From Paenibacillus sp. 19GGS1-52 (GTDB taxonomy: Bacteria; Bacillota; Bacilli; Paenibacillales; Paenibacillaceae): a stretch of 64,000 nucleotides of DNA. Under the pieces are notes generated by a model. The model was given only the letters and a program-made list of their open reading frames with translations. It was not told the DNA's origin and did not search any database. Position numbers and translations under genes: made by a program. The first letter of the stretch is position 1. Each line of letters opens with the position of its first letter. The stretch covers positions 6,634,001 to 6,698,000 of the forward strand of contig NZ_CP059724.1 in assembly GCF_022369515.1 (NCBI RefSeq), written 5' to 3'. This document shows positions 34,053 to 60,506 of the stretch, in pieces.

Positions 34053-35165
34053 TCAGCTGCCCGGTACATAGATCTTGTCAAAGAGACCGCCATCATTAAA
34101 GTGTTTCTCCTGCGTTTCTTTCCATGTTCCGAACTTCTCTGCGAGCGTAAATAACTTGATATCCGGGAACTTATCCTTGTACTGCGCTTTAACACTTTCC
34201 AGCGTAGGACGGTAGTAGTTCTCAGCCGCAATTTTTTGCCCTTCTTCAGAATAGAGATATTTCAGATAAGCCTCGGACACCTCACGAGTTCCTCTTTTAT
34301 CTACTACCTTATCTACTACAGCAACCGGCGGCTCAGCCAGAATACTCTCGGAAGGATTAATAATTTCAAATTTGTCCGGACCCAGTTCTTCTACCGACAG
34401 ATAAGCTTCATTCTCCCAAGCAATCAGCACGTCGCCAATTCCCCGCTCGACAAAAGTTGTCGTCGATCCTCGTGCACCAGTATCTAGAACAGGAACATGC
34501 TTAAACAATTCTTTTACAAACTCCTGTGCCTTGGCCTCGTCATTATTGTTATGATCCAGCGCGTAACCCCACGCTGCCAGGTAATTCCAACGTGCACCGC
34601 CCGAGGTCTTTGGATTCGGAGTAATTACCTCTACGCCTTCCTTTAATAGATCCGGCCAGTCCTTGATGCCCTTCGGATTACCTTTACGTACAAGAAATAC
34701 GATAGTTGAGGTATAGGGTGAGCTATTATGCTCAAATTTATTTTGCCAGCCTTCATTGATAAGACCTGCTCCCTGCAAGGCGTCGATGTCATAACCAAGC
34801 GCCAGTGTCACCACATCCGCCTCTAGTCCATCCAACACAGCCCGACTTTGTTTGCCCGATCCGCCATGAGATTGTTTAATGGTCACCTTCTGGCCAGTCT
34901 CCTGCTCCCAATGAGCAGCAAATGCCTTGTTATAGCTCTCATATAGTTCGCGGGTAGGATCATAGGAAACGTTAAGCAGTTCTACCGGATCTTTAGCTGG
35001 TGCCTTTGTCGCTTCGGCCGTGGCCGCCGCGTTACCTGAATTGGTTGCTGGTGCATCTGTTTCAGCATTTGTATTGCTATTATTATTGCTGCCGCAAGCA
35101 GTAAGCCCTACCGTTAACAGTAATGTAAAGCCAATAAGAAGCCCTTTTTTATTCCTTTTCTTCAT
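34053..35165 (-). CDS. Sulfate/thiosulfate-binding lipoprotein
   Basis: A 370-residue substrate-binding protein of the Sbp/CysP group. The signal peptide ends in the lipobox VGLTACGS with the lipid-bearing cysteine near residue 24, then an Asn/Ala/Thr-rich linker. Family blocks are [74 protein letters not shown] and [13 protein letters not shown] chose ATG 35163-35165 because GGGGGAGTGG lies before it. It is the first gene of the operon and lies behind a structured terminator leader. Confidence 0.93.
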
Positions 35166-35240
35166 TTCGAACCACTCCCCCATGTTATTTTAATATTTTC
35201 TCTAGCAATACCCCCGGTGAATACAATGTTAAGGTTAATA

Positions 35241-35334
35241 AAAAAAGAACGGAGGAAGGCCCACTTAGGGTAGGTCAAACCGGTCCCTATTGGACACGTG
35301 TCTGCTTAGCCATATTGCGGGCGTTCCTCCGTTC
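35241..35334 (-). promoter_or_regulatory. Structured terminator leader of the sulfate-uptake operon
   Basis: On the minus strand a 16-base arm (GAACGGAGGAACGCCC) pairs with a complement 56 bases later with one mismatch, and the stem is followed by seven Ts. The wide loop contains a further nested helix (TAGGG at 35266-35270 with CCCTA at 35285-35289, enclosing GGT/ACC). The element lies ~70 bases before the binding protein start and ~50 bases after the predicted transcription start, so it must be read through for expression. I could not match it to the SAM-I, T-box or other leaders that I know. Confidence 0.7.
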
Positions 35335-35349
35335 GTACGGTAAGAACAT
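35287..35349 (-). CDS. Possible 20-codon leader peptide of the sulfate operon
   Basis: An ATG at 35347-35349 opens a 20-codon frame (ending MAKQTRVQ) whose stop codon TAG lies at 35287-35289 inside the terminator loop. An internal ATG at 35311-35313 follows CGGAGGAAC, which is also the 5' arm of the terminator stem. Ribosomes on either start would touch the terminator arm. No cysteine or methionine run is present. Coding is unproven. Confidence 0.25.
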   Translation of the reverse strand: MFLPYERRNARNMAKQTRVQ

Positions 35350-35362
35350 CTTATTTATTATT

Positions 35363-35379
35363 CCTACCTATTTAGTAGG
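35363..35379. promoter_or_regulatory. Dyad operator downstream of the sulfate promoter
   Basis: CCTAC-N7-GTAGG lies just after the predicted transcription start and next to GGAATAATAAATA on the minus strand. The position fits a repressor; a CymR-type (Rrf2 family) sulfur regulator is a reasonable guess from gene function, not from a verified motif match. Confidence 0.5.
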
Positions 35380-35389
35380 TTATAAAAAT

Positions 35390-35418
35390 ATAATACTGAA
35401 ACCCCTCTACCCTGTCAA
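35390..35418 (-). promoter_or_regulatory. Sigma-A promoter of the sulfate-uptake operon
   Basis: On the minus strand TTGACA (35413-35418) is followed after exactly 17 bases by TATTAT (35390-35395). It reads into the dyad, the terminator leader and then the binding protein gene. Confidence 0.85.
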
Positions 35419-35565
35419 ACCTTTTTTTCTTAATGGACATCACTATGGTAAAACACGAGGGTACTCATTCCTGTAAAACCCTCTTGTTATTGAGGCTATA
35501 AAGTAATATTATTGCTACATCTTAAGGGGAGTAGAAATTTACCGCGAATGTCAGGGGAGTCTATG

Positions 35566-37866
35566 ATGGGTATGGATTTAGAGTATGGACCTGCATATGG
35601 ACCTGCGCCTGCTCCGCAGAGGCCACCGCTATACAGGCGCCTATTGGGGGAGATGGGACGAAGAGTCAGAGAAACGTATCGGTATGATACGGCCTTTTGG
35701 AGAACAGCACTTTCCGGTCTCTGGGTGATTGGCTTTTTGGCTTTTACGGTCTCCATTCTGGGGATACCCACCGGATTCGGAGTAGCGACCGACATCTTGC
35801 TGGCTGCAGGTGCCGGGACCATCGTGCTGGCCATAGCCGGCAATGTTGCAGCTGTTCTGCTGGCATTGACCGGACTGCGTGTTCCACGCTTATTTGCGGG
35901 TTTTTTGTTGAGCGATATGGGAACAATTCTACTAATACTATATTACGCTGATTTAGAGATTGAAGCAGCGGCTATCATTGCTGTCCTCGTGACTCTGCTA
36001 GGAGGTCTGGGCGGTCTGACGGTGGGTCTTCTGCATAGCGGAAAGGTAGCACGAGGGGTAACGGGAATCATTCTACTAGTAGCGCTGACCTTGTTCCCTC
36101 TAACTCTAGTAAACGGGGGACAAGGGAACCCTCTGCAGAAATCAGTGGCTCCAGATGTTATCCCGCTAAGCGCAGCAGATCCCGGTGCACCCGGTGATTA
36201 TAACTGGCATATGTTCACCTATGCCAGCGGTAAGGATTTACATCGTACAGAATACAGTACAGGCGCAAGTCTTATCTCTTCTGAAGTGGATGCTTCTGCT
36301 TATATCAAGGATTGGTCCGAGCTACGGACCTTATTCTGGGGCTTTGGCTATAAGTCACTTCCTCTAAATGCACAGGTCTGGATGCCTGAGGGTGAAGGGC
36401 CTTATCCGCTTGTCCTGATGGTGCATGGCAATCATATAATGGAGGATTATTCTGAAGGGGGTTATGCTTATCTGGGCGAGCTGTTGGCAAGCCGTGGTTT
36501 CATTGCAGTATCTCTGGACGAGAACTTCTTAAACTATTCCGCCTGGTCCGGTATTCCAGACAATGATTTCAAAGTCCGGACCTGGATGATCCTGAAGCAT
36601 TTGGAGCAAATCGCAACATTCTCGCAAGAATCCGGCAATCCTTTTTATCAAAAAATCGATTCCGCACAAACCGCTTTACTCGGCCATAGCCGCGGTGGTC
36701 AGGCGGTTGCTATGGCTGCAGATGCTGGTCGCTGGTTCAAAAGTGATCCTGTACTTGCCGCAACAGATGCCTTCCATATTACTTCAGTCATCGCTTTGGC
36801 TCCTACAGACACGGCGATAGAGGGTCAGCAAGCCCGACTCAATGATGTTAATTACCTGACACTGCAGGGTGCCCGTGATGGGGATGTACATGATTTCTAC
36901 GGAGACCGGCAATATATTCGTACAACCTATTCACGCAACTCGGATGCTTTTAAGAGCTCTCTCTATATTGCCGATGCTAATCATAGCCAATTTAATAGCG
37001 ATTGGGGTCTTCGGGATCAGGTACTGCCTGCTGGTCTGTTTCTTAACCGCAGTCAGATTATGGACGGCAAAGACCAGAGGCAGATCGCCAAAGTTTATGT
37101 ATCCGCCTTTCTGGAGACTACACTGCATGGAAAGAACGAATATCAGGGCTTATTCCATGATTACCGCAGTGGCCTGCAGTGGCTGCCGGAGACCACCTAC
37201 TATAATCGTTTCCAGAGTGGCGGTTTTCGCTCAATAGTAACCTTTGATGAGGATCGCAACAAAAATACGGCAGGGAATGGAACTGCAGAAGCAACGGGCT
37301 TACTCTGGACAGAGGAACTCGCCAAGGACCGTGAATCCAAGAGCAAAGCAACTTACGGTGTCGTGCTGGAGCGCACAGCCAATGAGAGTGAAGATGCCTT
37401 TTATCGCATTACCCTTAAGAGTGGGGTAGTCACTGAGCTAAGCTTGGCCGGTGCAGAGGGCTTAAGCTTCTCCCTGGCAAACCACGACGCTGACCGGGTA
37501 GAGGATATCCAGGAAACTCCGCTATCTCCGGATGTGGAAATTGAGCTGACAGACGAAAAGGGGAACTCTGCACGAATTCCCTTGAACGAGGTAAGGCAGA
37601 TTCTACCCCTGCCGCAGACTCAGTTCACCTGGAGTCCTTGGTTAGAAGAACGGATGAGCGATGGCAAATACGGCGATCCCTCCGAGGCGATTTTCCAAAC
37701 CTATGAATTGCCGTTCGAAGAGTTCCAGAAGGAAGAACCTTCACTAGACCCCGAGAAGCTGACCACCCTCACCTTCTATCTTAAAGAGAAAGGTGACAAG
37801 ATCATGCTCGATGATATCGGATTCTATACTAGAGGAACTAGTGGAACCGGAACAGCACTAAAGTAA
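35566..37866 (+). CDS. Membrane-anchored alpha/beta-hydrolase
   Basis: A 766-residue protein. Residues ~45-185 hold four or five TM helices (WVIGFLAFTVSILGIPTGFG and following), anchoring a large hydrolase domain. Catalytic-fold motifs are LVLMVHGNH (oxyanion strand, about 283-291) and LLGHSRGGQAVA with the nucleophile S375; a histidine in IADANHSQF and an acid in LQGARDGDVH are candidates for the triad. The last ~170 residues form a beta-rich extra domain. I chose ATG 35566, 6 bases after AGGGGAG; a TTG start 54 bases upstream lacks a site. Substrate unknown; the fold resembles cutinase/PET-hydrolase-like esterases. Confidence 0.75.
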   Translation: MGMDLEYGPAYGPAPAPQRPPLYRRLLGEMGRRVRETYRYDTAFWRTALSGLWVIGFLAFTVSILGIPTGFGVATDILLAAGAGTIVLAIAGNVAAVLLALTGLRVPRLFAGFLLSDMGTILLILYYADLEIEAAAIIAVLVTLLGGLGGLTVGLLHSGKVARGVTGIILLVALTLFPLTLVNGGQGNPLQKSVAPDVIPLSAADPGAPGDYNWHMFTYASGKDLHRTEYSTGASLISSEVDASAYIKDWSELRTLFWGFGYKSLPLNAQVWMPEGEGPYPLVLMVHGNHIMEDYSEGGYAYLGELLASRGFIAVSLDENFLNYSAWSGIPDNDFKVRTWMILKHLEQIATFSQESGNPFYQKIDSAQTALLGHSRGGQAVAMAADAGRWFKSDPVLAATDAFHITSVIALAPTDTAIEGQQARLNDVNYLTLQGARDGDVHDFYGDRQYIRTTYSRNSDAFKSSLYIADANHSQFNSDWGLRDQVLPAGLFLNRSQIMDGKDQRQIAKVYVSAFLETTLHGKNEYQGLFHDYRSGLQWLPETTYYNRFQSGGFRSIVTFDEDRNKNTAGNGTAEATGLLWTEELAKDRESKSKATYGVVLERTANESEDAFYRITLKSGVVTELSLAGAEGLSFSLANHDADRVEDIQETPLSPDVEIELTDEKGNSARIPLNEVRQILPLPQTQFTWSPWLEERMSDGKYGDPSEAIFQTYELPFEEFQKEEPSLDPEKLTTLTFYLKEKGDKIMLDDIGFYTRGTSGTGTALK

Positions 37867-60330: not shown

Positions 60331-60365
60331 ACACCGTAAGAACGTAGCAACACCCGTGAACTTCA

Positions 60366-60460
60366 TAGAATCAGGGGAGCTGGAATTAGGCCGGCTGAGA
60401 TTGTATCCCACAAGATACTGACCCTTATACCTGATCTGGATAATGCCAGCGTAGGAATAG
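60366..60460 (+). promoter_or_regulatory. TPP riboswitch (THI box)
   Basis: Conserved elements are present in order: CAGGGGAGC (60372-60380), GGCTGAGATT (60393-60402), ACCC (60421-60424), ACCTGATCTGGATAATGCCA followed by GCGTAGGAA (60429-60457). This is the thiamine pyrophosphate aptamer. A hairpin terminator follows at 60507. When TPP is bound, transcription of the transporter genes would stop. Confidence 0.96.
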
Positions 60461-60506
60461 CCACTAGTTCGGGTCCCAAGTGACCTCTACTATCTTGCGC
60501 CAAACC

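What the first reader, a model, noticed from the sequence alone, without database searches (positions are those of the whole stretch)
35241..35418. Sulfate-uptake operon behind an unassigned structured terminator leader
The promoter TTGACA-N17-TATTAT is followed by a CCTAC-N7-GTAGG dyad and then, ~50 bases into the transcript, by a 16-bp stem (one mismatch) with a 56-base loop, an internal helix and seven Ts. Read-through is needed to express the sulfate-binding protein, CysT and CysW. I see no SAM-I, T-box or other leader that I know. This suggests control both at initiation and at elongation, perhaps by a sulfur metabolite, a protein, or translation of a 20-codon leader frame whose stop lies in the loop.
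Basis: partly seen in the sequence, partly recalled or inferred. Interest (0 to 1): 0.62.

Follow-up and report, generated by a model that had tools for sequence, protein, structure and literature searches.

The report
Conserved attenuator before sulfate-uptake operon
In front of the sulfate-uptake genes of Paenibacillus and its relatives lies an undescribed RNA switch, in which one small hairpin competes with a stop signal; the last gene of the same operon, a small protein of unknown function, may be what operates it, although this has not been tested.

Summary
A consensus promoter, a 27-nt operator-like element at the transcription start and a 17-pair terminator with seven Ts precede sbp-cysT-cysW-oscA. 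P1 recurs across most of the Paenibacillaceae genera sampled (38 aligned leaders: 96.5% of cells paired; covariation 0.306 against 0.136 shuffled). The terminator and a second hairpin inside its loop (P2, two opposed bulged As) also covary. At least five genera build terminators of unrelated sequence on P1's 3' arm. Nothing matches Rfam. The 20-codon leader frame is not conserved, so translational attenuation is unlikely. Most likely this is a transcription attenuator with P1 as antiterminator, stabilised by a trans factor, behind an Rrf2/CymR-type operator. The best candidate factor is the operon's own DUF2292/OscA protein: all 33 DUF2292-less sbp operons examined lack P1. After correction for ancestry this is only suggestive (about 4 of 5 independent pairs agree, none disagrees, p=0.125). 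A small-molecule sensor through P2 remains open. No ligand, binding or read-through has been shown.

The parts
35390..35418 (-). promoter TTGACA-N17-TATTAT
   Evidence: equivalent -35 and -10 boxes in the homologous leaders
   Evidence: family-wide consensus ATAACCNACTAAACAGGTAGGAATWAT; single copy in the own genome at up to 3 mismatches apart from one chance-like site
35323..35347 (-). P1, antiterminator hairpin GUUCUUACCGUACGAACGGAGGAAC
   Evidence: exact motif only in Paenibacillus/Fontibacillus among 84,980 species genomes
35317..35334 (-). 5' arm of the terminator, overlapping the 3' arm of P1
35274..35305 (-). P2, hairpin in the terminator loop with two opposed bulged As (GC-AGAC-A-CG...CG-GUUU-G-A-C)
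   Evidence: retained with unrelated terminator stems in 28 of 30 further genomes
35247..35264 (-). 3' arm of the terminator
35240..35246 (-). U tract of the terminator
   Evidence: sequence
34053..35165 (-). sbp, sulfate-binding protein (start at 35165 behind GGGGGAG; 35183 is the alternative ATG)
   Evidence: NF008022 537 bits, TIGR00971 503 bits
33174..34013 (-). cysT, sulfate permease
   Evidence: TIGR02139 414 bits
32212..33075 (-). cysW, sulfate permease
   Evidence: TIGR02140 407 bits
31865..32104 (-). oscA-like DUF2292 protein (79 aa from this start; 32137 is the alternative start), candidate trans factor
   Evidence: PF10055 4.6e-16, NF033785 below its cut-off; found once in nearly every genome of the genus, usually about 3 kb behind P1

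Best explanation
The leader is a transcription attenuator. RNA polymerase first makes P1. As the terminator's 3' arm emerges it displaces P1, the terminator forms around P2, and transcription stops before sbp. The operon is expressed when P1 is held by a trans-acting factor, so that it works like the antiterminator hairpins of BglG-type systems without being one. Upstream, a repressor of the Rrf2/CymR type probably sits on the 27-mer at the start site when cysteine is plentiful. The most likely P1-binding factor is the operon's own DUF2292 (OscA/YezD) protein, which would give positive autoregulation under sulfur shortage. Shown computationally: the elements, their covariation, the mutual exclusion, recurrence in many genera, and a CymR orthologue in the genome. 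Inferred: direction of control, a trans factor, OscA as that factor (about 0.3), CymR as the repressor, sulfur status as the signal.
For: P1 is supported by covariation across the family (96.5% paired, 30 cells with both sides changed against 10.8 in shuffles, 0/500; slid controls 39-58% paired). The terminator covaries independently (59 such cells against 20.1; a loop-of-P1 pair is GC 38, AU 14, GU 9). The terminator fold is 11 kcal/mol below the best P1 fold, while P1 forms first in growing transcripts. P1's 3' arm is reused as a terminator 5' arm with unrelated sequences in g1, g3, g5, g6 and g9, weakly in g4. P1 is nearly invariant on both arms while the terminator's 3' arm drifts. DUF2292 lies in the same operon and first in the operon in genus g9. 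All 33 DUF2292-less sbp operons examined lack P1. In Pseudomonas corrugata, oscA is co-transcribed with sbp, and its inactivation causes Cr(VI) sensitivity (PMC2996968, citing Viti 2009, whose title links oscA to the sulphur starvation response). CymR orthologue: 241 bits against a cut-off of 195.
Against: No expression data. The P1-DUF2292 association gives about 4 concordant and 0 discordant of 5 supported independent pairs, p=0.125, and 14 DUF2292+ genomes lack P1. DUF2292-minus genomes were scored P1-minus after inspection rather than by a blind rule. Most other sampled genera have P1 without an obvious overlapping terminator. In one Paenibacillus clade of seven genomes the U tract is broken. 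The predicted DUF2292 fold resembles no solved structure. CymR's own DNA motif was not available to test.
Confidence: 0.6

Rival explanations
1. A riboswitch: P2, alone or with P1, binds a sulfur metabolite and thereby favours or hinders the terminator; no dedicated protein is needed.
For: P2 keeps two bulged As and flanking G-C pairs while its helices covary (7 of 10 pairs with both-side changes; examples CAUAC:GUAUG and CACAC:GUGUG), and it is retained with unrelated terminator stems in DUF2292-less genomes.
Against: Several Paenibacillus clades keep P1 and the terminator but lose P2 (L065, L073, L083, L088-L090), and g9 has P1 plus terminator without P2. P2 is only about 32 nt with a variable loop, and no Rfam aptamer matches.
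Confidence: 0.25
2. Leader-peptide attenuation: ribosomes on the 20-codon frame decide between the two folds.
For: The frame is open in the window, with its stop in the loop.
Against: ATG at that position in 9 of 89 leaders, any start codon in 32 of 89, lengths 4-60 codons, no cysteine run.
Confidence: 0.02
3. A simple partial terminator that sets a fixed expression level; all regulation is by the repressor at the operator.
For: The operator-like element is the most widely kept feature, and some operons have no terminator.
Against: A fixed terminator needs neither a conserved competing hairpin with an invariant internal loop nor a conserved P2.
Confidence: 0.1
4. P1 acts after transcription (RNA stability, translation, or recruitment of a factor that travels with RNA polymerase), and its overlap with terminators is secondary.
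For: P1 without an obvious overlapping terminator in most of the other genera sampled; a clade with a broken U tract keeps P1.
Against: Terminators of different sequence all start on P1's 3' arm in at least five genera.
Confidence: 0.15

Closest known systems
BglG/SacY/LicT ribonucleic antiterminator (RAT) systems
   Same: Small imperfect hairpin overlapping the 5' arm of an intrinsic terminator; often autogenous.
   Different: P1 has one 2x1 internal loop and a 4-5 nt loop, not the RAT sequence with two internal loops. The operon has no PRD/BglG protein; the genome's three CAT_RBD proteins lie elsewhere. The sensed nutrient is not a sugar.
ANTAR targets (NasR/EutV type)
   Same: Leader hairpins that govern a terminator in nutrient-use operons.
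   Different: ANTAR targets are two hairpins with hexanucleotide loops; P1 has 4-5 nt loops and is one hairpin overlapping the terminator.
LoaP hairpin (PMC12691694)
   Same: A small leader hairpin linked to antitermination in Bacillota.
   Different: LoaP recognises a UNCG tetraloop hairpin separate from the terminator and serves long antibiotic operons; P1 has A-Y-N-R/A loops and overlaps the terminator.
S-box (SAM-I) and T-box leaders
   Same: Attenuators of sulfur and amino-acid genes in Bacillota.
   Different: No match in Rfam at gathering or relaxed thresholds.
CymR/IscR-type Rrf2 operators
   Same: The ATAnCCnACT half resembles the Rrf2/IscR half-site known from memory; a CymR orthologue is present.
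   Different: Single-copy in the genome at up to 3 mismatches; binding not tested.

Membership tests
Any Rfam RNA family | score above the gathering cut-off | tested here: not met
   (window and 18 homologous loci)
Terminator/antiterminator attenuator | two mutually exclusive conserved folds, one an intrinsic terminator | tested here: met
   U tract present in about 79 of 89 genus leaders
Terminator/antiterminator attenuator | conditional read-through | not testable with these tools
   needs transcription assays or Term-seq
BglG/SacY RAT systems | about 30-nt hairpin with two asymmetric internal loops | tested here: not met
   P1 has one 2x1 internal loop
BglG/SacY RAT systems | CAT-RBD/PRD antiterminator in or beside the operon | tested here: not met
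   three CAT_RBD genes in the genome, none near the operon
ANTAR antiterminator targets | hexanucleotide-loop hairpins | tested here: not met
   P1 loop is 4-5 nt in all aligned leaders
LoaP targets | UNCG tetraloop hairpin | tested here: not met
   P1 loops are mostly A-Y-N-R/A; LoaP feature from PMC12691694
Leader-peptide attenuators | conserved short frame with start codon and diagnostic codons | tested here: not met
Riboswitches | direct binding of a small molecule | not testable with these tools
   no ligand assay possible; P2 is conserved
CymR regulon | CymR present in the genome | tested here: met
   NF047409, 241 bits against cut-off 195
CymR regulon | CymR binds the element | not testable with these tools
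   no published matrix found in the library; needs EMSA or ChIP
OscA/YezD (DUF2292) proteins | DUF2292 domain above cut-off, in a sulfur operon | tested here: met
   the narrower OscA equivalog NF033785 is below its cut-off (34.9 of 85)

The most novel reading that the evidence does not exclude
DUF2292 (OscA/YezD), a small protein family of unknown function found with sulfate-uptake genes from Paenibacillaceae to Pseudomonas, is a new class of RNA-binding antiterminator. It would recognise the P1 hairpin in the leader of its own operon and so switch sulfate uptake at the level of transcription elongation.
Probability: 0.25. Interest if true: 0.82.

Novelty: new variant of a known kind. Interest (0 to 1): 0.66.

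Why it matters
Sulfur-gene control in Bacillota is known mainly as CymR, CysL, S-box and T-box regulation. A conserved, undescribed attenuator in most of the Paenibacillaceae genera sampled would add an elongation-level layer to sulfate uptake. It also gives a specific, testable RNA target for a protein family (DUF2292/OscA) whose molecular function is unknown although its loss has a chromate/sulfur phenotype in Pseudomonas.

Tried and rejected
Leader peptide: rejected. Known RNA families: none. The perfect CCTAC dyad as the functional operator: the palindrome is not conserved, the asymmetric 27-mer is. P1 as a DNA palindrome: rejected, because the flanking As and the 2x1 internal loop are asymmetric while the outer stem covaries as RNA. 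DUF2292 as the P2 binder: rejected, because P2 is kept in genomes without DUF2292. P2 as the universal element: rejected, because it is lost in several P1+ clades and absent in g9. A second P1-like site in the own genome at 3 mismatches was not followed and looks like chance. Foldseek on the DUF2292 model gave no match below E=2, and there is no PDB sequence match. Literature searches found nothing on this leader; the transcriptome study of P. riograndensis compared 5' UTRs only with Rfam, and its riboswitch list does not contain it.

Full report
WHAT IS THERE. The finding lies on the minus strand. Reading in that direction, TTGACA-N17-TATTAT (35418-35390) is followed by ATAACCTACTAAATAGGTAGGAATAAT (35383-35357), a short A/T stretch, hairpin P1 GUUCUUACCGUACGAACGGAGGAAC (35347-35323), an intrinsic terminator (arms 35334-35317 and 35264-35247, seven Ts to 35240) and a hairpin P2 inside its loop (35305-35274). 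Then come sbp, cysT, cysW and a DUF2292/OscA-like gene. The leader folds at -56.9 kcal/mol, z -6.5. P1's last twelve bases are the start of the terminator's 5' arm, so the two cannot coexist. Enforcing P1 costs 11 kcal/mol, yet in growing transcripts P1 is the predicted fold until the terminator's 3' arm emerges.

CONSERVATION IN THE GENUS. blastn found the leader in 91 of 100 genomes of the genus. The 90 homologous leaders fetched all precede sbp. In an alignment of 61 leaders P1 is nearly invariant on both arms, whereas the terminator's 3' arm accepts mismatches and G-U pairs; the extra constraint on the 5' arm is what a second, competing fold predicts. RNAalifold itself chooses P1 plus P2. 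The terminator helix shows 59 cells with both sides changed against 20.1 in shuffles, 0 of 500. P1 plus P2 show 24 against 4.0. P2 is a hairpin with one bulged A on each strand five pairs apart, and most of its pairs covary.

BEYOND THE GENUS. A covariance model of the leader hits 189 of 394 family genomes, one hit per genome, in five genera. Reading the sbp upstream region in sampled genomes of the other genera changed the picture. The 27-mer at the start site is nearly family-wide (consensus ATAACCNACTAAACAGGTAGGAATWAT). About 10-15 bases behind it lies a P1-type hairpin in most genera: outer stem, 2x1 internal loop (YA or GA against A), inner stem CCGG:CCGG, CCGU:ACGG or CCAG:CUGG, loop usually A-Y-N-R/A. 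On 38 such sequences 96.5% of cells pair and the covariation score is 0.306 against 0.136 in shuffles, 0 of 500; sliding the partners drops pairing to 39-58%. In genera g1, g3, g5, g6 and g9, more weakly in g4, the 3' arm of P1 doubles as the 5' arm of a terminator, with unrelated sequences and, in g9, without P2. Most of the other genera sampled show P1 without an obvious overlapping terminator; there its role is unknown. P1 was absent from one sampled g14 genome (L276) and from the g17 genomes.

WHAT IT IS NOT. No Rfam family matches the window or 18 homologues. The 20-codon frame is not conserved: ATG in 9 of 89, any start in 32 of 89, lengths 4 to 60. P1's loops are not UNCG (LoaP; PMC12691694), nor hexaloops (ANTAR), and its single internal loop is not the RAT of BglG-type proteins; no such protein is encoded in the operon (one search finds three elsewhere).

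THE TRANS FACTOR. The operon's last gene encodes a DUF2292 protein: a conserved 48-residue core, MAKPLKVDE.W..RI..L..MEFGSL.I.VHEGQIVQ.ERTERKR, and a basic, probably disordered tail. AlphaFold gives helix-strand-strand for the core and low confidence for the tail; nothing in the PDB resembles it. In the genus it occurs once in nearly every genome, usually about 3 kb behind P1; in genus g9 it is the first gene behind the leader. sbp operons in 33 genomes without DUF2292 (in g3, g5, g9 and g17) all lack P1. Four scan hits among them lie in P2 or coding sequence and were discounted by eye. In a 125-genome set the counts are 78 with both, 14 with DUF2292 only, 33 with neither, and none with P1 only. 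On an Sbp tree this reduces to five supported independent pairs, about four agreeing and none disagreeing, p = 0.125: suggestive, not significant. P2 cannot be its target, because P2 persists in genomes without DUF2292. Independently, Pseudomonas corrugata oscA is co-transcribed with sbp and its inactivation causes chromate sensitivity (PMC2996968, citing Viti et al. 2009). I therefore propose DUF2292 as the P1-binding factor at about 0.3, within a broader claim (0.6) that P1 is a factor-stabilised antiterminator.

INITIATION CONTROL. The 27-mer overlaps the start site and its left half resembles Rrf2/IscR half-sites (from memory). The genome encodes a clear CymR orthologue among several Rrf2 proteins. 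CymR with CysK represses cysteine genes when cysteine is present (PMC2940859, PMC3828012). That CymR binds here is inference; the element is single-copy at up to three mismatches apart from one chance-like site.

LIMITS. No transcript or binding data exist for this leader. The direction of control is inferred from anatomy. The broader form of P1 was not searched outside Paenibacillaceae. Genera are anonymous codes in the genome tool, so g-numbers cannot be turned into names here. One Paenibacillus clade keeps the hairpins but has a broken U tract, which argues that termination is not essential everywhere.

Noticed in passing
window 60363-60474 (+): TPP riboswitch (RF00059, 63.1 bits), the only Rfam match in the window.
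   Followed up: no
window 35512-37866 (+): Divergent neighbour of the operon is a 784-aa protein with a chlorophyllase/PETase-like alpha/beta-hydrolase part and a hydrophobic N-terminal region.
   Followed up: no
L290, L296, L291 (genus g9), behind the leader: The DUF2292 gene appears to be first in the sulfate operon, directly behind P1 and its terminator, instead of last.
   Followed up: partly
L232-L246, L253-L255: P2 is retained although P1 and the terminator stem have been replaced by unrelated sequence; a different small hairpin (e.g. CGCC-AUUGU-GGCG in L236) then overlaps the terminator 5' arm.
   Followed up: partly
L037, L039, L045, L047, L048, L050, L051: One Paenibacillus clade keeps P1, P2 and the terminator stem but has a broken U tract (TCTATTGCTTGTT) and a start codon soon after it.
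   Followed up: no
L078 (G088): Leader truncated right after the start of P1 (TTCTTACC), terminator deleted, operon kept: a natural deletion mutant.
   Followed up: no
L230 (G025), L247 (G186), L249 (G201): One stop codon inside the stretch that matches sbp in each of three genomes.
   Followed up: no
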